Shown piece by piece: positions 1,335-12,379 of a stretch of DNA of 12,395 nucleotides (positions are counted from its first letter, which is position 1; each line of letters opens with the position of its first letter). The stretch lies in assembly GCA_018667995.1 (NCBI GenBank), contig JABIQT010000888.1:1-12395 (forward strand), written 5' to 3'. The position numbers and the translations under genes were made by a program. The notes beneath the pieces were generated by a model. It saw only the letters and a list, made by a program, of their open reading frames with translations. It was not told where the DNA came from and did not search any database. The stretch comes from Candidatus Latescibacterota bacterium. Its GTDB lineage: Bacteria > JAAXHH01 > JABIQT01.

Positions 1335-3401
1335 TCAGTTTCGTGCCGGCGTCACCATGAGTTCCTCAAAATCGCCCATCCATTCATTGGATTCTTCGGC
1401 GTTCTCCTGGGTCAAGGCAAGCTTGAGAACCTGCTCTACATTATCAACCAGGAAAAAACACAGCTTCTCTTTGATGGACTGCGGCACATCCTCAAGGTCT
1501 CTCTCATTACGTTTCGGTAGTACAACGGTGGTGATTCCGGCACGCTGAGCGGCTAGCACCTTCTCCTTGATTCCACCAACCGGCAAGACCTTTCCACGCA
1601 ACGTCACCTCACCAGTCATTGCCAGGTCGTTTCGGACAGAGCGCCCCGTCAAGAGAGAGGCGAGTACGGTTGTCAATGTGACACCCGCAGAGGGTCCATC
1701 TTTGGGAATCGCGCCAGCAGGAAGGTGGATGTGGATATCGTGATCATCGAAGAAATCAGCCGCGATACCCCACTCCAAGGCATGCGACCTGATGTAAGTG
1801 AGAGCTGCCTGAGCCGACTCCTTCATGACGTCACCGAGCTGACCCGTCAAAGTCAGCCCCTTCTTCCCATTCATCTTGCTGGCCTCTATGAACATGATCT
1901 CCCCGCCAACGGCAGTCCATGCAAGTCCAATGGCGACGCCAGGTTCACCTGTACGCTCGGAGACCTCAGAGTGGTATTTCTGTGAACCCAGGTGCTTCTG
2001 GACTTCCTCTGGTGAAATGATGAATGTTGAATCGCCTCCTTCGGCGACGATACGTGCCACTTTGCGAGTCACTTTACCGATCTCGCGTTCGAGGTTTCTT
2101 AGTCCGGCCTCGCGGGTGTATTGGTCGACTATGGTCCGGACACCAGTCCTTTCAAACTTTATCTGCTCCGGCGTGAGTCCGTGATCACCCACCTGCTTTG
2201 GGATCAGGTGCCGCTCTGCTATTTCGATCTTCTCCTCTTCGGTATAACCCGAGAGTTCAATAACTTCCATCCGATCGCGCAATGGACCAGGAATCGTCGA
2301 CAACACATTTGCGGTGGTGATAAACATGACATTCGAAAGATCAAATGGTACATCGAGATAGTGATCCGCAAAGGAGTTATTCTGTTCGGGATCGAGGACC
2401 TCAAGAAGTGCTGACGACGGATCGCCCCGGAAATCTGAACCAAGTTTGTCGATCTCATCAAGCATAAACACAGGGTTATTGGTTCCGGCCTTACGGATGC
2501 CCTGAATGATGCGCCCTGGCAGCGCACCTATGTATGTACGCCTGTGCCCACGAATCTCTGCCTCATCGTGAACTCCTCCAAGGGACATCCTCACGAATTC
2601 ACGGCCGAGAGCCTTTGCGACTGAACGTCCCAGTGATGTTTTACCCACGCCCGGAGGACCGACAAAGCACAATATAGGTCCTTTCATTTCGGGTCTCAGC
2701 TTTCGAACTGACAGATGCTCAAGGATACGATCCTTTATGGTCTCAAGTCCGTAATGATCTTCATCAAGAATGGTAGAGGCTTCGCCAATATCGAGCCTAT
2801 CAGTGGTTGACGAACTCCACGGCAATTCAGACAACCACTCGAGATAAGTACGGGCTATCGAGAATTCAGGCGAAGATGGTGACATTCTCGAGAGGCGAGT
2901 CAGCTCCCGATCCGCATCCTTGCGCACATCTTCCGGCATCCCTGACTCCGCTATCTTGCGGCCAAGATCGTCACGTTCTTCTGAGTGTTCATCGGCTTCG
3001 CCGAGTTCTTTTTGAATGGCCTTCATCTGTTCGCGCAGATAGTAATCACGCTGGGCCTTTCCCATCTCAGTCTGTACCTGATTCTGGATTCTACTGCCCG
3101 TCTCAGCTACTTCAAGCTCACGATTGAGTAGGATAGTAAGTCCCTCCAACCGCTGACGGACATTGTCTGACTCCAAAACTGCCTGTTGATCGGCCAGAGA
3201 TATCTTCAAGTTGAAAGCGATAAAATCGGCCAATTTGGAGGGTGCTTCTTCAAGGTTTATGGCGGCGATCTTCAATTCATCAGACATATTTTGGACCAGA
3301 TCTACGAGCTTCTGGAATTGTCCGGAGAGATTTTGCGCGAGCCCTTTTACTTCTACTGAATCATCATCCGCTTCGTCGAGTAGTTCCGCCTTGACACGCA
3401 T
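1335..3401 (-). CDS. lon: Lon protease, ATPase and protease domains (second piece of an interrupted gene)
   Basis: ATP-dependent AAA+ serine protease of the cytoplasm that removes misfolded and regulatory proteins. This 688-residue frame holds the end of the substrate-binding N-domain and the coiled-coil region (about residues 1-200). The AAA+ module follows, with Walker [10 protein letters not shown] at 248-256 and Walker [10 protein letters not shown] at 311-319. The C-terminal protease has its catalytic Ser571 in PKDGPSAG. The partner lysine lies in GGIKEK; the 43-residue spacing usual in Lon points to Lys614. The first 121 positions of a normal Lon lie upstream in the same frame (3402-3764) but are separated by a TAA at 3423-3425. 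The ATG at 3401 has no clear Shine-Dalgarno site and falls inside the N-domain, so it is probably not the natural start. Restored across the stop, the protein would have 809 positions, typical of Lon. It is either a recent nonsense mutation or a sequence error; all motifs downstream are intact. Confidence 0.93.
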
Positions 3402-3422
3402 TATTGGCTCGGTCTCAAGGAC

Positions 3423-3425
3423 TTA
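3423..3425 (-). other. Premature in-frame TAA codon within lon
   Basis: This single ochre codon occupies position 114 of the reconstructed Lon frame. Both flanks are in the same reading frame and both match Lon. It is neither TGA (selenocysteine) nor TAG (pyrrolysine), so recoding is not an obvious explanation. Other genes in the window show no internal TAA, so a reassigned code is not supported. Confidence 0.8.
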
Positions 3426-3764
3426 AATGACCTTCATTCGTGACACACCCTGTACCAGAACGTGAAGGCCGTCCGGAGGTAGTTTCATCGACTTATGGAC
3501 CATTGACAGTGTACCAGTATTGTAGAGATCCTCCGCTTGGGGCGCGTCTACATCAGGATCGCGCTGGGCAAGTATCAGAATTTCACTGTCGCCTTGAAGC
3601 GCCTCATCAAGCGCCTTAACCGACCCTGACCGATTGGCCACGAGGGGTGCAGCCATGTGGGGATAGATTATCAAGTTTCTTACGGGCAGAACTGCAATGC
3701 TATCATATATTCTTGCCTTGCCAGATTCGGACCGGTCCGGTCCATGTCCAGTTGAGATTGCCAT
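3423..3764 (-). CDS. lon: Lon protease N-terminal fragment ending at an in-frame TAA
   Basis: This frame encodes 113 residues matching the start of the Lon N-terminal (substrate-recognition) domain. The pattern SIAVLPVRNLIIYPHMAAPLVANRS is followed by the LILAQRDPDVDAP and HVLVQGVSRMKVI segments expected at this place in Lon. The ATG at 3764 is preceded by GAAAGG with a 7-nt gap, so this is very likely the true lon start. Translation stops at TAA (3423-3425). The seven codons after the stop (V-L-E-T-E-P-I) continue naturally into the 688-residue frame ending at 1335, with no frame change. One substitution such as GAA to TAA would explain the break. Alone, this piece has neither ATPase nor protease and would not be a functional Lon. 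Confidence 0.85.
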   Translation of the reverse strand: MAISTGHGPDRSESGKARIYDSIAVLPVRNLIIYPHMAAPLVANRSGSVKALDEALQGDSEILILAQRDPDVDAPQAEDLYNTGTLSMVHKSMKLPPDGLHVLVQGVSRMKVI

Positions 3765-4035
3765 TTTCGCACCTTTCTTTATAAGGAAATTGAGACAGTC
3801 AGTATCTAATCCCCGACCACAAGTCGGCGATATCTGGCAACATACAGTGTCTCGATGTTATAGCACTGAACGTGCCAATCGGTTTCGCCAAGGATTAAGA
3901 AACCTGACAATGACCCGTTTTACAGTGGGTTATGAATGCGAATAAGGAAAGCGGAGCGGAGACACATCGAGGTATGATGCGCAGATTTGGTGCAGCAACT
4001 GCCGATTTGACAGACAAACTGACATTACTACGGAA
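3765..4035. other. Intergenic region between namZ stop and lon start
   Basis: About 270 bases with no convincing gene; short frames on both strands lack family resemblance. It should contain the lon promoter, but I found no clean -35/-10 pair and no CIRCE or HAIR heat-shock operator on the minus strand. A small 5-bp hairpin (CCGAC, loop CACAA, GTCGG at about 3814-3828) lies in the probable lon leader. I see no terminator after namZ, so read-through into lon is possible. Confidence 0.4.
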
Positions 4036-5205
4036 TCAGTTATCGTAATGCAAAAATGGCAGACTAAGGTCTCGGAACATGGACTCAGCCTCAAGAAATC
4101 CGTCGGTAATCTCACTAGGTCGGACCCCGTCCATCAGATCCTTGCGTACGGTGTGATTTCCGATCAATCTGTCGAAGAAAAACTGGGGATCTCCGGCCAC
4201 TTTTGTCCACTCGATTTCATTCGGCCATAGTTCAAGGATCTGTGACATCATTGACAGGGAAACGTAGAGAGGATCAAAGTTTCCCCTGTCCATCACGTGA
4301 ATCTGAACCCCGTGACAAGTACAGTCCTTCAGTTTCCAGAAAGTTGGCCGAAATGTTGCCGGACGAAACCTGATACCTGGCATCTGTCGATCATTCAGTG
4401 CCTCGGCCAGTTGACTACTCACCATCCAGGGCGCACCGATTAACTCAAAGGGACGGGTAGTGCCCCTCCCCTCCGATATATTGGTTCCCTCGAACAGACA
4501 CAACCCCGGATAAACAACAGCCGTATCAACGGTAGGCATGTTGGGCGATGGTGGCACCCATTGGAGACCTGTATCTTCGTACCACATAGTTCGTCGCCAT
4601 CCGGTCATGAACGCAACTTCAATTTCGGCACCAATATCCTCGGTTCTGTTTAGCAAGAGGGCCAATTCACCAAGTGTCATACCGTGGCGAATAGGAATAG
4701 ACGAAGCGCCTTCAAACGATCTCAGGTCCGGTTGAACAAGAGGACCTTGTACTCGCATTCCGGTGATTGGATTCGGTCTGTCAAGAACCATTACTGGTAT
4801 GCCAGCCGCAGCGGCCGCCTTCAAAGTGTATATCAACGACGTCAGGAAGGTGTAGAATCGAACTCCTACATCCTGGATATCAAAAATCAACAGGTCGATC
4901 TCTCGAAGCACTTCACCAGCGGGTGATTCCTTAGGTCCATACAGGCTGTGTACAGGTAAGCCTGTGTCGCGATCTGTTCCGTCACCGATTCTCTCACGAT
5001 CCTGGATGTGACCGTACAGTCCATGTTCTGGACCGAAGAGCGCGACAATCCTGTTCCCAAGGAGTTTTCTTAGTACAGAAATGGTACTATCGAGTATAGC
5101 GGTGACACCTGTCTGATTAGTAATCAGGCCGATACGTTTTGCTGTTCCCAACTTAATAGGATCTCTCACAAGGCATTCTATGCCCGTTTGCACTTTTCCA
5201 CCCAC
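4036..5205 (-). CDS. namZ: DUF1343 exo-beta-N-acetylmuramidase (NamZ family, GH171)
   Basis: NamZ enzymes remove terminal N-acetylmuramic acid from peptidoglycan fragments during wall turnover and recycling. The 389-residue protein shows the family pattern in order: RIGLITNQTG (24-33), FGPEHG (57-62) with its conserved acidic and histidine residues, FDIQDVGVRFYT (108-119), LDRPNP (141-146), PSPNMPT (219-225) and EGTNISEGRGTTRPFE (239-254). Length is normal for the family. The start is a GTG at 5205 with GGAG about 10 nt upstream; a second in-frame GTG at codon 5 is possible. No signal peptide is visible at either start, which suggests cytoplasmic action on imported muropeptides or sugars, unlike the secreted NamZ of Bacillus. 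It is divergent from the kinase operon and precedes lon on the same strand. Family assignment is strong; substrate is inferred from the family. Confidence 0.9.
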   Translation of the reverse strand: MGGKVQTGIECLVRDPIKLGTAKRIGLITNQTGVTAILDSTISVLRKLLGNRIVALFGPEHGLYGHIQDRERIGDGTDRDTGLPVHSLYGPKESPAGEVLREIDLLIFDIQDVGVRFYTFLTSLIYTLKAAAAAGIPVMVLDRPNPITGMRVQGPLVQPDLRSFEGASSIPIRHGMTLGELALLLNRTEDIGAEIEVAFMTGWRRTMWYEDTGLQWVPPSPNMPTVDTAVVYPGLCLFEGTNISEGRGTTRPFELIGAPWMVSSQLAEALNDRQMPGIRFRPATFRPTFWKLKDCTCHGVQIHVMDRGNFDPLYVSLSMMSQILELWPNEIEWTKVAGDPQFFFDRLIGNHTVRKDLMDGVRPSEITDGFLEAESMFRDLSLPFLHYDN

Positions 5206-5276
5206 GTTGTTTCGTCTCCAATTCAGCCCATTCTCGCTTCTTAATGAGTGTTGACAAGAAGAGGCACACAGGTTAG

Positions 5277-5309
5277 TTTTTGCCGTTCAGTCAATATATA
5301 GTATATGAC
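5277..5309 (+). promoter_or_regulatory. Candidate promoter of the sensor-kinase operon
   Basis: This AT-rich element lies about 90-120 nt before the first kinase gene. It reads TTGCCG (5280-5285), an 18-nt spacer, then TATGAC (5304-5309), with an overlapping TATAGT at 5297-5302. A similar arrangement (TTGCAG, 17 nt, TATGAC, also overlapping TATAGT) occurs before the cytochrome gene at 10311-10339. The part 5291-5308 is also a near-palindrome (TCA...TGA), so it could be an operator as well, shared with the divergent namZ. No experimental start site is known. Confidence 0.4.
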
Positions 5310-5400
5310 GGTCTAACTATCTTCCAGCGAATACATGTGATAGCTCAGTCGACACCTCCCATCTAATAGGGAACGAGTGTCGGCCGGTAGGTGATTCGGG

Positions 5401-7032
5401 ATGCAACAGCAAGTTCTCATAGTCCACAGTCAAACGTCGGTAATCGCAGACGTCTTAGGTGCACTGGATCAAGGGCCACATCAGTTGACGGTGTCGACCG
5501 AACCGAACCTAACCGAAACATTGTGTGAGAAATACCGTCCGGACCTGCTAATTATGGACTGGGATCCGGATGGTTTCGGCGGCATTGAGGCTTTTCAAGC
5601 CTTACATGACCTCAATCCGGAGATGCTATCAATCGGCATCGCTCCGGGGGATGTCCAGGCTGTACCATCAGAGTACGTCCGCAACGGACTTCGGTCTTGG
5701 CATCAGCTGCCTATTAAGATTGACCAACTACGTAAGCAGGTGGAAAGATGCCTTTGGGTCGCTCAACCAAAAAGGACTCTTGTCGACCTTTCGAGAGACA
5801 TAGACGAACGTGCAAGCCATCTCGATACCTTTCTATCGATCAGTCGTTCGATTACTGCAAATCTGCGGAATGATCTCGACACACTATTAGAACAGATCGC
5901 CGAAGAGACCTCTCGCATGCTGGTCGCGGAACGGACGAGCTTGTTTATTTTTGACAGGGCACATGACTGTCTGTGGTCACGCGTAGCAGAAGGGGAGGTC
6001 GATCGAACTATAACGCTGGGTATGGACCAACCCGGGATCGTCGTGCATGTGGCTAAGACCGGACAACCGTTACAGGTCCAGGACGCCTATCGTGAACCGC
6101 TTTTTAATCCGGACGTAGATCGAATTACCGGTTATCATACCAGGAATATACTAGGCTTTCCGGTTCGGAACGACCGCGGGGAGCTCATCGGCGTAATCGA
6201 AACGCTTAACAAGATAAGTGGCCCTTTTACTGATTCGGACGAACGGCTACTGGCCATCATGTCGTTTCTCTTCGCTGCGGCTATTGAAAATGCTCAGTTG
6301 TATGAGGCACTTCGTCAACAGATCCGTGAAAACGAATCACTAGAATCACAGAAAATCCAGGCTGACCGTCTGGCGGTGGTGGGTCAGATGGCAAGCAGCA
6401 TCATCCATGACATACGGGGACCTCTTGCAATTATACGCGGATACGCAGAATTAGCTGTTGCAGGAACGGAGTCAACTGAGAAGCGGCAACGCTTCGCAAA
6501 TACCATCACCGCGGAAGTATCGAGGCTGCATGATATGGCCCGCGACCTGCAGGAGTATTCCGATGGGACGAGTTCGGTAGCGCTTATTCCAACGGCCATA
6601 GAGCCATTTATCGAATCCTTTCTCGAACTGATACGACCAGACTTTTCGGAAAGGAGCATCCATATCATCCATCACCTGCAGTATGAAGGGAATCTGATGA
6701 TGGATGCAGGGCGAATGAAGCGCGCTTTTCACAATATCTCAGCGAACGCGGCGGACGCTATGGCGAGCGGTGGATCATTCATGGTTACGTCCTCACAAGT
6801 TGGCGAGCACGTGCATATCGAACTTCACGATACAGGCGCAGGCGTGCCGGATGACATCCAGGATCGGCTCTTTGAGCCTTTCGTGACCTCCGGTAAAACC
6901 CACGGAACCGGTCTTGGACTGGCGGTCGTAAATCGCATTATCCACGAACATCAAGCCGAGATCACTGTGGCGACAAGCACAACCGGTACAACTTTTACCA
7001 TACGCTTTCCTGTACCAATGGAAGGAACGTAA
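5401..7032 (+). CDS. Soluble hybrid sensor: degenerate receiver, GAF domain and complete histidine kinase
   Basis: Cytoplasmic sensor histidine kinase of 543 residues without membrane segments. Residues 1-120 resemble a response-regulator receiver. Asp53 stands at the phosphorylation position, but the N-terminal acidic pair is replaced (VLIVHSQ), and the usual Thr/Ser and Lys switch residues appear to be missing (QLP where KP is usual). It is probably a pseudo-receiver. Residues 155-300 form a GAF domain with the N-K-F-D-E pattern (Asn270, Lys271, Phe276, Asp280, Glu281) seen in cyclic-nucleotide-binding GAF domains. The kinase core is complete: H-box SSIIHDIRGPL with His336, N-box Asn445/Asn449, G1 DTGAG (477-481), F-box FEPF (491-494) and G2 GTGLGL (502-507). 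The start ATG has a weak GGTGA-like site upstream. The stop is 3 nt before the next gene, so the two are co-translated. The output partner is not in the window; no intact response regulator with an effector domain is present. Confidence 0.9.
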   Translation: MQQQVLIVHSQTSVIADVLGALDQGPHQLTVSTEPNLTETLCEKYRPDLLIMDWDPDGFGGIEAFQALHDLNPEMLSIGIAPGDVQAVPSEYVRNGLRSWHQLPIKIDQLRKQVERCLWVAQPKRTLVDLSRDIDERASHLDTFLSISRSITANLRNDLDTLLEQIAEETSRMLVAERTSLFIFDRAHDCLWSRVAEGEVDRTITLGMDQPGIVVHVAKTGQPLQVQDAYREPLFNPDVDRITGYHTRNILGFPVRNDRGELIGVIETLNKISGPFTDSDERLLAIMSFLFAAAIENAQLYEALRQQIRENESLESQKIQADRLAVVGQMASSIIHDIRGPLAIIRGYAELAVAGTESTEKRQRFANTITAEVSRLHDMARDLQEYSDGTSSVALIPTAIEPFIESFLELIRPDFSERSIHIIHHLQYEGNLMMDAGRMKRAFHNISANAADAMASGGSFMVTSSQVGEHVHIELHDTGAGVPDDIQDRLFEPFVTSGKTHGTGLGLAVVNRIIHEHQAEITVATSTTGTTFTIRFPVPMEGT

Positions 7033-7035
7033 CGC

Positions 7036-8601
7036 GTGAAACTACTGGTAATCACAGATGATCCCGTGGAACTTGCTGCTGGTGAGAATGGCACCTTTGA
7101 TTTTAATATCGCGGGCACACCTGAGGACGCGTTGAGTATGCTAAGCGGTGACCATTACGAAGCAGTCATTATGGATGCGAATAGTATGACGACCGCCCCC
7201 GTAACCGATGCATATAGATCGACTCAAAGCCCCGCCTGTCAGCTCATTCTGGTGGTGCCACCTAACTCCGAGATACCGATAGATGCCCTCAATGAGGGTA
7301 TAGATGGCTACATTTCTCAACCAGTCACTGAAGAGTCCGTCCGGGCCCTCTGGCAGGTCCGTGACCACGTCGAATCAGAAATACTGCGCCATCGTACCGA
7401 ATTACGCCACCGGGATGAGGAAATCGCTACGCTCGTCGCAATCAGCAATATCGTCACCTCCAACCTCGAATTCGTTCCTTTACTGGCGGCCATAGCCTCC
7501 GAGACTTCTCGCGCACTGGATGCAGAGCGTACAAGCATATTTCTGTACCATAAGGAGAGAGATGAACTTGAAGCCGCCTTTGCTGAGGGGTTGGGTCCCT
7601 ACGCGATCAAGATGCCAGCTACCCAAGGTATTGCGGGAAGGGTTGCTACATCTCGGAAAATGCTAAACGTTTCCGAGGCGTACGGAAGTCCATACTTCAA
7701 TGCGGAAACTGATAAAAGAACCGGGTATGAGACAAAATCTGTGCTGTGCGTGCCGCTGATCAGTCCGTTTGGCACCTTGATTGGGGTGGCGGAATGCCTC
7801 AACAAGAACAGTGGCATTTTTACAGCCCCTGACGAACAGGTGCTCACGATGCTCTCACCACTATTTGCGGTAGCGATCGAGAACGCTCTTCTGTACCAGG
7901 ATCTGATGACCCAGGTCCACCAAAATGATGAAATGACCGCCGAGAAGATACGATCGGAAAGATTGGCGATCATCGGTAGGATGGCGAGTTCAGTGACAAG
8001 AGATATCGCGGGCCCGATGGAAGAGATCGTCCAACATGCAAGCCGGTTAGGCCAAGAAGACCTTACACCAAAAGAGAAAGAAACAGTCTGTCAAGCGATA
8101 GAGGGGGTAGTGGATCAGCTCGTAGACAGGGCCCAGGAACTCCTGGATTTCTCCAAAGGATCCCTCGAACTCCTAAAAGATGTTACCACTGTAGAACAGG
8201 TCTTCGAGGGAATGAGAATCCTTCCCGGAGCCGCGAGTGGGGGCACACGAACGACTCTCAGTGATGGGATCAATCGGAACAGAAGTGTTACACTGGACCT
8301 GGAAAAACTGCTTCGATCAATCATGCGCATCATGGGGGCGCTACGAGAATTGGATGCATCCGCATTCTCCTTGGCCCTCGACGCCAGAGACGACGAGTTG
8401 CTCATAGAGGTATCACCACTTGACGAAGCGACATTGACCGCCTTCATGGACATGCTTGATGAACCTTTTTCGGGAAATGCAGAGGACCATGATACTGGTC
8501 TTCGAATACTCATTGCACAACAGGTGATTCACGCTCACGGGGGCATACTCGAGAAACTGCCCCATGGCTTGCAGGTAAGAATACCCGTTACGCCAACATA
8601 G
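7036..8601 (+). CDS. Paralogous sensor with inactivated kinase core (pseudokinase): receiver-like, GAF, HK-like
   Basis: This 521-residue protein aligns along its length with the preceding kinase and clearly arose by tandem duplication. The start is GTG, preceded by AAGGA about 8 nt upstream. The receiver-like part (1-110) keeps an acidic pair (Asp8, Asp9) and Asp47, but the switch Thr/Ser and Lys are absent (QP for KP at 95-96). The GAF domain (about 140-285) again has N-K-F-D-E: Asn256, Lys257, Phe262, Asp266, Glu267. In the dimerisation helix the phospho-accepting histidine is Arg322 (SSVTRDIAGPM). In the ATPase-like part the N-box asparagines are gone (RSIMRIMGAL) and G1 is gone (VSPLDEA), while DEPF (475-478) and HDTGLRI remain. 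It cannot be expected to autophosphorylate and is more likely a regulatory partner, perhaps forming heterodimers with its neighbour. The reading frame is clean and long, so it is under selection rather than decaying. No membrane segment. Confidence 0.88.
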   Translation: MKLLVITDDPVELAAGENGTFDFNIAGTPEDALSMLSGDHYEAVIMDANSMTTAPVTDAYRSTQSPACQLILVVPPNSEIPIDALNEGIDGYISQPVTEESVRALWQVRDHVESEILRHRTELRHRDEEIATLVAISNIVTSNLEFVPLLAAIASETSRALDAERTSIFLYHKERDELEAAFAEGLGPYAIKMPATQGIAGRVATSRKMLNVSEAYGSPYFNAETDKRTGYETKSVLCVPLISPFGTLIGVAECLNKNSGIFTAPDEQVLTMLSPLFAVAIENALLYQDLMTQVHQNDEMTAEKIRSERLAIIGRMASSVTRDIAGPMEEIVQHASRLGQEDLTPKEKETVCQAIEGVVDQLVDRAQELLDFSKGSLELLKDVTTVEQVFEGMRILPGAASGGTRTTLSDGINRNRSVTLDLEKLLRSIMRIMGALRELDASAFSLALDARDDELLIEVSPLDEATLTAFMDMLDEPFSGNAEDHDTGLRILIAQQVIHAHGGILEKLPHGLQVRIPVTPT

Positions 8602-10438: not shown

Positions 10439-10891
10439 ATGAAAGCGCATGTGTACCGTTTGATGGTTGGCTTGTGCCTGTTCTTACTTGTTGCAGCAGT
10501 ATCTATCACAGCCTGCGGTGGTGGGGAGGAAGCGGTTGAAGAAACAGCAGCAGAGCCGGTTGACGAAAACCTGTCCGCCCGGCAGGAAAAGATGAAGCAG
10601 ATTAGCGCCCTGTGCGGCGGCATTCAGAAGATGCTCAAGGCCGGATCCACCACAGACGTCTCCGAAGACGCTAAGAAGCTGAAGGCTATAATGGCAGAAG
10701 TCGCCATGATTCCTCCTCCGTTTGACACCGAGAAGTATAAATTCTATGCCGCAGATTTCCAGACGAAAGCTGATACATTAGCCATGGCTTCCGAATCTGG
10801 ATCCGCAGATGACTCAAAGCCTGCTTTCGTGACACTGACCGAGACATGCGGTGTCTGCCACTATACCTGCAAATATCCCCTCGACCTATAA
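10439..10891 (+). CDS. Lipoprotein with C-terminal CxxCH heme site (cytochrome c-prime/c556-like)
   Basis: Small membrane-anchored c-type cytochrome, probably an electron carrier in the periplasm. The start at 10439 is chosen over an in-frame upstream ATG because AAGGAG lies 5 nt before it and the signal peptide then begins naturally. The 150-residue product has a positively charged start, a hydrophobic core (about 8-24) and a lipobox SITAC with Cys26 as the lipidated residue, followed by GGGEE and an acidic linker. The rest is mostly helical, with the heme motif CGVCH at 137-141 close to the end. Helical bundle plus C-terminal CxxCH is the design of class II cytochromes (c-prime, c556). The sequence between is too divergent for me to be sure of that fold. 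The neighbour downstream is a multi-cluster ferredoxin, consistent with a redox role. Confidence 0.8.
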   Translation: MKAHVYRLMVGLCLFLLVAAVSITACGGGEEAVEETAAEPVDENLSARQEKMKQISALCGGIQKMLKAGSTTDVSEDAKKLKAIMAEVAMIPPPFDTEKYKFYAADFQTKADTLAMASESGSADDSKPAFVTLTETCGVCHYTCKYPLDL

Positions 10892-10948: not shown

Positions 10949-12379
10949 ATGACAGATATCGCCACAGTTCCGAGCATCCCCGAAGTCGGGGAGTTGTCTG
11001 AATTTGAGATATTTGTGGGGCTTCCCGCCAAGCTCCTCGAGAGGGTGCGCGACAACGCGCCTCTTCTCGAGGCGGCCCCTGAAGAGATCATCTGTACCGA
11101 GGGACAATTTGGACGTGAGCTCTATCTTATCTTGTCCGGATATGTCCGGGTGTCTAGAAACACCGAGACTGAGCCCTTCTTGGTGGGTAGTCTGAACCGT
11201 GGTGATTTCTTTGGTGCCATGAATCCTCAGTCAAACCAGGTTTCAGCCGTTTCTGTCACGGCGACTACCGACTGTGTCCTGCTTGAGATATCTCATACCC
11301 TCCTGCAAGCAATCCTCAAATCTTCTCCTCACGCACAGAAACTCGTCGAGCGGACGTATAACGATCTGGCACTTCGGTCCGAACTCCGGCACGTAGACCT
11401 ATTTGAAGGTTTCAGCTCAAAAGAACTTGATCACCTGATATCCAAAGCCGAGGTGGTAGCCTATGCCAAGGATGAAGTGATCGTGCGCGAAGGCGACGAC
11501 GGAGATGCTATTTTCATTGTACGAAGCGGATTTGTGAAAATTGTGAAGGAAAGGCCAGAACCGCAGGAGGATCTTGTTATTGCCTACATGCGGGAGGGCC
11601 AGTATTTCGGAGAGATGGCTCTGCTGCGGGGTGAAAAGCGCAGCGCCTGGGTTATTTCTCTGAACGACTCGGAAGTAATCCGAATTACCAAGGACGACTT
11701 CGACCTGCTGTTGGATTCACACCCTGTCATGCGCAAGCAAATTGAGGAAGTAATTAAGAAACGCGATGAGCGTTTTGAAGAATTGCTCGACGATGACGAT
11801 ATGGCGGACCAGATTAAGTTTGTCGTAAATGAAGGATTGATGCAGCAGAATACGGCACTCGTGATCGATATGGACAAGTGTATCCATTGCGACAACTGTT
11901 CCGATGCGTGCGCGGCTATTCACGACGGACATTCTCTGTTGGTTCGGCATGGTCCGCAGTTGGATACGGTGGAAGCAAGCACATTGTTTCCAACATCGTG
12001 CCATCACTGCGAGGACCCACTATGTCTGACCGGGTGCAATTTCAATAGCATGGAGCGATCTCCTGCAGGCGAAATCAGCATTGTCGAGGAAACTTGTACA
12101 GGATGCAACCTATGTGCAAAGCTTTGTCCCTATGACACCATTGTAATGGTTCCGCGCCAATCGGAGACGCAGGTGGGCTGGTTGGGTAGGCTCTTCGGCA
12201 GCAAGCCTGAACCGGTTTTTGTACCCACATCTCCGACGGGAAAAAAGTACAAACGACTGGCCATGCAGTGTGATCTTTGTACGGGACGCCAGCACATGAA
12301 CTGTGTCTATAACTGCCCTACAGGAGCCATCTTTCAGGTCAAGCCCAATGAGTACTTCTCCGGTGCCGAAAGCAACTGA
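10949..12379 (+). CDS. Two cyclic-nucleotide-binding domains fused to a four-cluster [4Fe-4S] ferredoxin (NrfC/DmsB-like)
   Basis: A 476-residue fusion protein. CNB domain 1 (about 19-130) lacks the ligand-binding Glu and Arg (FFGAMNPQ). CNB domain 2 (about 148-265) has a complete phosphate-binding cassette FGEMALL...RSA (220-233) with Glu222 and Arg231, so it could bind cAMP or cGMP. A charged helix (about 260-285) leads to the ferredoxin part. Its 16 cysteines fall in four groups: 311/314/317/321, 351/354/359/363, 383/386/389/393 and 441/444/452/456. This is the pattern of electron-transfer subunits such as NrfC, DmsB and PhsB, carrying up to four [4Fe-4S] clusters. There is no helix-turn-helix, signal peptide or membrane segment, so it is not a CRP/FNR transcription factor and is probably cytoplasmic. 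It follows the cytochrome gene by 57 nt on the same strand. The start has only a weak upstream GGG. Partner oxidoreductase subunits may lie beyond the window. Confidence 0.92.
   Translation: MTDIATVPSIPEVGELSEFEIFVGLPAKLLERVRDNAPLLEAAPEEIICTEGQFGRELYLILSGYVRVSRNTETEPFLVGSLNRGDFFGAMNPQSNQVSAVSVTATTDCVLLEISHTLLQAILKSSPHAQKLVERTYNDLALRSELRHVDLFEGFSSKELDHLISKAEVVAYAKDEVIVREGDDGDAIFIVRSGFVKIVKERPEPQEDLVIAYMREGQYFGEMALLRGEKRSAWVISLNDSEVIRITKDDFDLLLDSHPVMRKQIEEVIKKRDERFEELLDDDDMADQIKFVVNEGLMQQNTALVIDMDKCIHCDNCSDACAAIHDGHSLLVRHGPQLDTVEASTLFPTSCHHCEDPLCLTGCNFNSMERSPAGEISIVEETCTGCNLCAKLCPYDTIVMVPRQSETQVGWLGRLFGSKPEPVFVPTSPTGKKYKRLAMQCDLCTGRQHMNCVYNCPTGAIFQVKPNEYFSGAESN

What the first reader, a model, noticed from the sequence alone, without database searches (positions are those of the whole stretch)
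10949..12379. Cyclic-nucleotide-gated ferredoxin: tandem CNB domains fused to a 16-cysteine four-cluster Fe-S module
One reading frame joins two CNB domains (the second with an intact Glu222/Arg231 phosphate-binding cassette, the first without) to an NrfC/DmsB-like ferredoxin with four complete cysteine groups. CNB domains normally control transcription factors, kinases or channels. Here the only apparent output is electron transfer, suggesting direct allosteric control of an electron route by a cyclic nucleotide. The cassette and cysteines are seen directly; the gating idea is inference.
Basis: partly seen in the sequence, partly recalled or inferred. Interest (0 to 1): 0.68.

Follow-up and report, generated by a model that had tools for sequence, protein, structure and literature searches.

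The report
Nucleotide-sensing subunit of membrane electron chain
This gene makes a protein that joins two signal-sensing (cyclic-nucleotide-binding) domains to a four-cluster iron-sulfur electron wire; relatives in many bacteria sit beside, or are fused to, a membrane cytochrome, so it is probably the regulated inner part of a chain that carries electrons out across the cell membrane, an arrangement I could not find described.

Summary
In detail: window 10949-12379 (+) is one 476-aa frame with two CNB domains and a HycB/NrfC-type ferredoxin with all 16 cysteines. CNB2 has a canonical phosphate-binding cassette (Glu222, Arg231); CNB1 does not. The fusion is old and widespread: whole-length relatives in 15/398 Pseudomonadota, 45/396 Acidobacteriota, 18/235 Myxococcota and 21/201 Chloroflexota genomes.

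The finding missed the partners, because the contig ends here. In 48 of 49 loci examined outside Chloroflexota, a four-TM protein with four invariant His (two HX13H pairs, NOX/ferric-reductase pattern) follows directly or is fused to the ferredoxin, and a 3-10-haem c cytochrome usually comes next. The window's own genome has these genes on another contig. In relatives the input module varies: an NAD(P)H/FAD reductase, NuoEF plus a HoxU-like part, or none. I read it as the cytoplasmic wire and sensor subunit of a transmembrane electron-export complex. Gating by cyclic nucleotide is plausible (at least one canonical cassette in 48/50 proteins; a cAMP-phosphodiesterase-like gene adjacent in an alphaproteobacterial clade) but not shown. 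No matching paper was found. New variant of a known kind.

The parts
10949..12379 (+). CNB-CNB-4x[4Fe-4S] protein, 476 aa
   Evidence: orthologues L013, L014
11063..11290 (+). CNB1 beta barrel (residues about 39-114), phosphate-binding cassette degenerate (FGAMNPQSNQVSA)
   Evidence: Pfam PF00027, two stretches; AF2 strands, no cassette helix
11450..11689 (+). CNB2 beta barrel (residues about 168-247), canonical cassette; Glu222 at 11612-11614, Arg231 at 11639-11641
   Evidence: Pfam 170-258; VIA Z 20.0 to PKG II CNB-B with cGMP, 18.9 to SthK with cAMP; conserved in 42 of 50 relatives
11723..11836 (+). helical linker (residues 259-296) from CNB2 to the ferredoxin, candidate coupling element
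   Evidence: AF2 helices 259-281 and 283-296, pLDDT falling to 43 at the end
11855..12358 (+). HycB/NrfC-type ferredoxin, residues 303-470
11879..11911 (+). Cys group I: C311xxC314xxC317xxxC321
11999..12037 (+). Cys group II: C351xxC354xxxxC359xxxC363
12095..12127 (+). Cys group III: C383xxC386xxC389xxxC393
12269..12316 (+). Cys group IV: C441xxC444x7C452xxxC456
10439..10891 (+). cytochrome c'-like lipoprotein (ITAC lipobox, CGVCH), directly upstream, likely periplasmic member of the same cluster; the ORF listing starts it at TTG 10409, the ATG at 10439 after AGGAG fits better
   Evidence: PF01322 34.6 bits over cut-off 26.5; sequence; same gene at the same place in L013 9468-9971

Best explanation
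The protein is the cytoplasmic wire-and-sensor subunit of a transmembrane electron-transfer complex. Electrons enter its four [4Fe-4S] clusters from a cytoplasmic donor: NAD(P)H through a fused FAD reductase or through NuoEF/HoxU-like parts in relatives, and an unidentified donor in the window's lineage. They pass to two b haems in a four-TM partner and then to a membrane-anchored multihaem c cytochrome in the periplasm. The tandem CNB domains read a cyclic nucleotide (cAMP or cGMP) and, through the helix joining CNB2 to the ferredoxin, alter docking or distance along the wire, so that electron export follows second-messenger state. Shown: domain content, conservation, gene partners, fusions. 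Inferred from known chemistry: haem ligation and direction of flow. Inferred only: nucleotide binding and gating. I put the wire-in-a-membrane-chain part at about 0.85 and the gating part, given that, at about 0.55.
For: Full-length family in four large phyla plus two small groups. Cyt b next door or fused in 48 of 49 loci outside Chloroflexota; fusions in two separate parts of the tree, L092/L093 and L118-L121 with L150. The cyt b family has four invariant His, H102/H116 and H269/H283, in 50-51 of 51 sequences. A cytochrome with at least 3 CXXCH starts within about 1.2 kb downstream in 45 of those 49, with an FHA domain in those checked by Pfam outside the window's order. The window genome carries cyt b, a 3-CXXCH cytochrome and a TPR lipoprotein in the same order as L013. 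Input modules: Pyr_redox + CNB + CNB + Fd; Complex1_51K, 2Fe-2S_thioredx and Fer2_4. Sensing: CNB2 canonical in 42/50 and at least one canonical cassette in 48/50; CNB2 fold match to cNMP-bound domains, Z 17-20; class III cyclases in the window genome, 4, and in 29/30 carrier versus 20/30 non-carrier Acidobacteriota genomes, Fisher p 0.006, uncorrected for genome size or kinship; an Rv0805/Icc/GpdQ-type phosphodiesterase gene follows the cytochrome in nine alphaproteobacterial loci.
Against: No binding or activity data exist. L116 and L117 have lost the cassette Arg in both CNBs but keep cyt b and cyt c, so the chain can exist without a canonical site. Most Chloroflexota relatives lack cyt b and cyt c and have weakened cassettes. 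The window's lineage has no identified electron-input module. The ferredoxin half of the AF2 model is unreliable (pLDDT under 50, 9-sequence alignment), so no coupling geometry can be read from it. The window and the C339 contig do not overlap, so their adjacency is inferred from L013 and L014.
Confidence: 0.5

Rival explanations
1. Same electron chain, but the CNB domains no longer sense anything: they are a dimerisation or docking scaffold for the ferredoxin and cyt b.
For: CNB folds without ligand are known (general knowledge); CNB1 is degenerate in the window lineage, CNB2 in L097, L118-L121 and L150, and both lack the Arg in L116/L117.
Against: 32 of 50 relatives keep both cassettes canonical and 48 of 50 keep at least one; a scaffold needs neither the Glu nor the Arg.
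Confidence: 0.25
2. The chain is regulated through the CNB pocket, but by another ligand (cyclic dinucleotide, haem, metabolite), as in CNB-fold regulators such as Clp, CooA or CprK.
For: The CNB superfamily includes non-canonical ligands (PMC2246266, for CooA and chlorophenol sensors; Clp from general knowledge); the cassette drifts in some branches.
Against: Canonical GE...R(S/T)A cassette in most members; nearest solved structures are cAMP/cGMP-binding domains; a cyclic-nucleotide phosphodiesterase-like neighbour.
Confidence: 0.13
3. Electrons run inward: periplasmic cytochromes receive electrons from an outside donor and cyt b passes them to the ferredoxin and NAD(P)+ or a cytoplasmic acceptor.
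For: The gene content alone does not fix the direction; large multihaem cytochromes and porin-like genes lie near some loci.
Against: Reducing NAD(P)+ or low-potential clusters from c haems is uphill without a coupling pump, and none is conserved in the loci listed; NAD(P)H-oxidising modules are the ones fused.
Confidence: 0.1
4. The clusters are a redox sensor and the CNB domains the output (for example binding a partner), so it is a signalling protein and not a wire.
For: The window neighbourhood holds GAF-histidine kinases, and a GGDEF-like response regulator sits downstream on C339.
Against: Four clusters in wire order and fusion to cyt b and to FAD reductase speak for electron transport.
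Confidence: 0.04

Closest known systems
HycB/NrfC/DmsB/PsrB-type 4x[4Fe-4S] electron-transfer subunits
   Same: Four Cys groups in the same order; HycB4 and FHL subunit 2 align over the whole ferredoxin part.
   Different: Two CNB domains in front; partner is a dihaem b protein and a c cytochrome; no NrfD or molybdopterin subunit seen among the Pfam-checked neighbours.
NADPH oxidase / ferric reductase / MsrQ-type dihaem b proteins
   Same: Partner has two HX13H pairs on TM helices and weak Ferric_reduct / Ni_hydr_CYTB matches; cytoplasmic reductant to outside acceptor (inferred).
   Different: Electrons would arrive through four Fe-S clusters, with CNB domains in between, and leave through a multihaem c protein.
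Tandem-CNB regulators: PKA regulatory subunit, PKG
   Same: Two CNB domains in tandem with canonical cassettes in most relatives; fold matches to PKA R and PKG.
   Different: Output is a ferredoxin, not kinase inhibition.
CNB-controlled bacterial enzyme: mycobacterial Pat acetyltransferase (Rv0998)
   Same: CNB domain directly attached to an enzyme (NCBIfam NF058543 match in the CNB only; 4avb).
   Different: Acetyltransferase, single CNB, soluble.
HoxEFU/NuoEFG NADH-oxidising module
   Same: In L107, L110 and L113 these parts precede or are fused to the CNB-ferredoxin.
   Different: There they feed a CNB-ferredoxin/cyt b chain, not a hydrogenase or complex I.

Membership tests
CNB domain superfamily (PF00027) | CNB beta barrel recognised above the curated cut-off | tested here: met
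   133.8 bits against cut-off 27.5, two stretches; Z up to 20
Cyclic-nucleotide-binding CNB (ligand site) | Phosphate-binding cassette with GE and R(S/T/A)A | tested here: met
   CNB2 yes; CNB1 no
Cyclic-nucleotide-binding CNB (ligand site) | Measured binding of a cyclic nucleotide | not testable with these tools
   needs purified protein
DMSO-reductase-type Fe-S subunit (HycB/NrfC/DmsB) | 16 Cys in four groups with the canonical spacing | tested here: met
   47 of 50 relatives complete, 2 with one substitution in the alignment, 1 masked
DMSO-reductase-type Fe-S subunit (HycB/NrfC/DmsB) | Passes a curated subfamily model (NrfC, DmsB, HydN and others) | tested here: not met
   Best 43-49 bits, far below cut-offs of 200-1003
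DMSO-reductase-type Fe-S subunit (HycB/NrfC/DmsB) | Encoded with a molybdopterin enzyme and/or NrfD-like anchor | tested here: inconclusive
   None among the Pfam-checked neighbours, but not every neighbour was scanned
NOX/ferric-reductase-type dihaem b membrane protein (partner, on C339) | Two His pairs about 13 apart on two TM helices | tested here: met
   H102/H116, H269/H283 invariant
NOX/ferric-reductase-type dihaem b membrane protein (partner, on C339) | PF01794 or PF01292 above the gathering score | tested here: not met
   18.6-24.0 bits against 28-30.1
Class III cyclic-nucleotide phosphodiesterase (neighbour in alphaproteobacteria) | NCBIfam CpdA or SpdA model above cut-off | tested here: not met
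   78 and 133 bits against 225 and 400; still nearest to Rv0805/Icc in the PDB

The most novel reading that the evidence does not exclude
A cAMP- or cGMP-gated transmembrane electron valve: across several phyla a second messenger directly switches export of NAD(P)H-derived electrons to periplasmic multihaem cytochromes, with an FHA domain on the cytochrome subunit as a second regulatory input.
Probability: 0.4. Interest if true: 0.8.

Novelty: new variant of a known kind. Interest (0 to 1): 0.62.

Why it matters
Second messengers are known to control transcription, kinases, channels and a few enzymes. Direct allosteric control of a respiratory-type electron path by a cyclic nucleotide would be a new regulatory layer linking signalling to redox balance and possibly to extracellular electron transfer. 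The family is widespread, has tractable carriers (Sphingobium megaplasmids), and has swappable input modules, so the idea can be tested directly.

Tried and rejected
Viral contigs: no match. Overlap of window end with contig C339: none, so joining is inferred from synteny only. Cyclase genes 8-12 kb from the module in G488, G824, G652 and G480: the genes in between are not conserved, so I do not count it as linkage. Considered and rejected: chance ORF fusion or assembly artefact (three genomes, same frame); free-standing soluble ferredoxin as the main form (partners in 48/49 loci); membership in NrfC or DmsB proper (scores far below cut-offs). AF2 could not model the ferredoxin half because only window and the search for related loci sequences may be used, giving 9 rows. 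Eight topic searches of the literature and one for FHA plus cytochrome c3 found no paper on this fusion or gene set; the library is open-access PMC only, so this does not prove absence. The 2007 CNB survey found (PMC2246266) has no mention of ferredoxin in its main text.

Full report
Observation. The frame at 10949-12379 (+) encodes 476 aa with two CNB domains followed by a ferredoxin with 16 cysteines. CNB2 carries the canonical cassette FGEMALLRGEKRSA; CNB1 has lost both the Glu and the Arg (FGAMNPQSNQVSA). CNB2 superposes on cGMP-bound PKG II CNB-B (Z 20.0, 1.9 A over 147 residues) and cAMP-bound SthK (Z 18.9, 1.5 A over 134). The ferredoxin part matches HycB4, HycB3 and formate hydrogenlyase subunit 2 over its whole length.

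The fusion is real. Two other genomes of the same order carry the same frame at 67-68% identity, L013 (record CAJXCW010000089.1) and L014 (VGJU01000347.1, a Candidatus Zixiibacteriota MAG; partial, the contig begins within CNB1). The first residues are conserved from the ATG in L013. In the window's class 3 of 16 genomes have it.

Distribution. An alignment of six relatives, used as a profile at E <= 1e-50, finds it in 15 of 398 Pseudomonadota, 45 of 396 Acidobacteriota, 18 of 235 Myxococcota and 21 of 201 Chloroflexota genomes (phyla named from the records that served as centres) and on 12 Sphingobium megaplasmid records. It is a family present in a minority of genomes of many groups.

Partners. 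The window is at a contig end, so I tabulated the neighbours in 60 loci with profile HMMs. Outside Chloroflexota (49 loci) a four-TM protein starts within 330 nt downstream in 41 and is fused to the C-terminus of the ferredoxin in 7; only L096 lacks it. Across 51 sequences it has four invariant histidines, H102/H116 and H269/H283 in the numbering of the window genome's copy, i.e. HX13H twice, the pattern of NOX/ferric-reductase dihaem b proteins (that comparison is from general knowledge; Pfam Ferric_reduct and Ni_hydr_CYTB match only weakly). A cytochrome with 3-10 CXXCH starts within about 1.2 kb downstream in 45 of the 49, and in the members checked other than the window's order it has an FHA domain. 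In the window's own genome these genes are on contig C339: cyt b 5188-5985, a 3-CXXCH anchored cytochrome 4859-5179, a TPR lipoprotein 4219-4791 and a response regulator 3186-4166, all on the minus strand and in the order seen in L013 and L014. C339 and the window do not overlap, so adjacency is inferred.

Input modules. In one clade (29 of 60 sequences, SH-aLRT 99) a TrxB-like NAD(P)H/FAD reductase is fused in front. In L107 and L110 the gene before it is a NuoE-NuoF fusion and the protein's own N-terminus is HoxU/NuoG-like; L113 has the same layout by gene size, cysteine count and the start of the upstream protein. In L119 and L120 an FAD protein lies two genes downstream. The window's lineage has none of these nearby. 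The swapping of input and the constancy of output is the best evidence that the CNB-CNB-ferredoxin core is the hub of an electron path. Cyt b fusions occur in two separate parts of the tree.

Sensing. Among 50 proteins outside Chloroflexota, by a fixed pattern, both cassettes are canonical in 32, only CNB2 in 10 (including the window), only CNB1 in 6, neither in 2. In six of the ten CNB2-only cases, all Myxococcota, CNB1 still has GE and an Arg run and misses only the last position of the pattern. The window genome has four class III cyclases. Carrier Acidobacteriota genomes have one in 29 of 30, non-carriers in 20 of 30 (p 0.006, not corrected for genome size or kinship). In nine alphaproteobacterial loci the gene after the cytochrome is a metallophosphoesterase nearest to Rv0805 and Icc in the PDB, below the cut-offs of the named cAMP-phosphodiesterase models. 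These are supporting, not decisive.

How it most likely works. Cytoplasmic reductant to four Fe-S clusters, to two b haems, to periplasmic c haems, with the CNB pair placed between donor and clusters so that ligand binding moves the C-helix of CNB2 (residues 259-281) that leads into the ferredoxin. Domain content and partners are shown; haem ligation and direction are inferred from known relatives; nucleotide binding and gating are inferred only. Direction outward is favoured because the fused modules oxidise NAD(P)H.

Compared with what is known. Each part belongs to a known family, but I found no description of the combination in the full-text searches (open-access PMC only). I classify it as a new variant of a known kind: a transmembrane reductase chain with a built-in cyclic-nucleotide sensor. 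The Chloroflexota branch, without cyt b in most members and with weakened cassettes, shows that the fusion also exists in another setting whose function is open.

Noticed in passing
window 1335-3764 (-): The Lon protease is split into two frames (688 aa and 113 aa, separated by about 20 bases), while L013 has one 819-aa frame: a frameshift or an assembly error in this MAG.
   Followed up: no
window 5401-8601 (+): Two tandem GAF proteins; the first is a full histidine kinase, the second has a GAF domain but no recognisable HisKA or HATPase match, so it may be a degenerate kinase. The pair is conserved in L013.
   Followed up: no
L163 (G000:C339) 5986-6449: The contig end next to cyt b holds an opposite-strand TPR-like fragment just upstream of the cyt b start region; possibly a chimeric assembly end, which would explain the missing link to the window.
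   Followed up: partly
L153-L161 (Chloroflexota): A divergent branch of the fusion without cyt b or cyt c, with the cassette Arg often changed to His and group I written CxPGCRxCxxxC or similar; neighbours are not conserved among the loci looked at.
   Followed up: partly
L148 (Myxococcota), first 230 residues of the frame: What look like two FHA-type domains in front of CNB-CNB-ferredoxin, read by eye and not checked with Pfam.
   Followed up: no
L032 17953-21945, L084, L087, L107, L110, L111: Large opposite-strand proteins of about 1100-1330 aa with 7-10 CXXCH lie next to the module in several loci; possibly further electron carriers of the same system.
   Followed up: no
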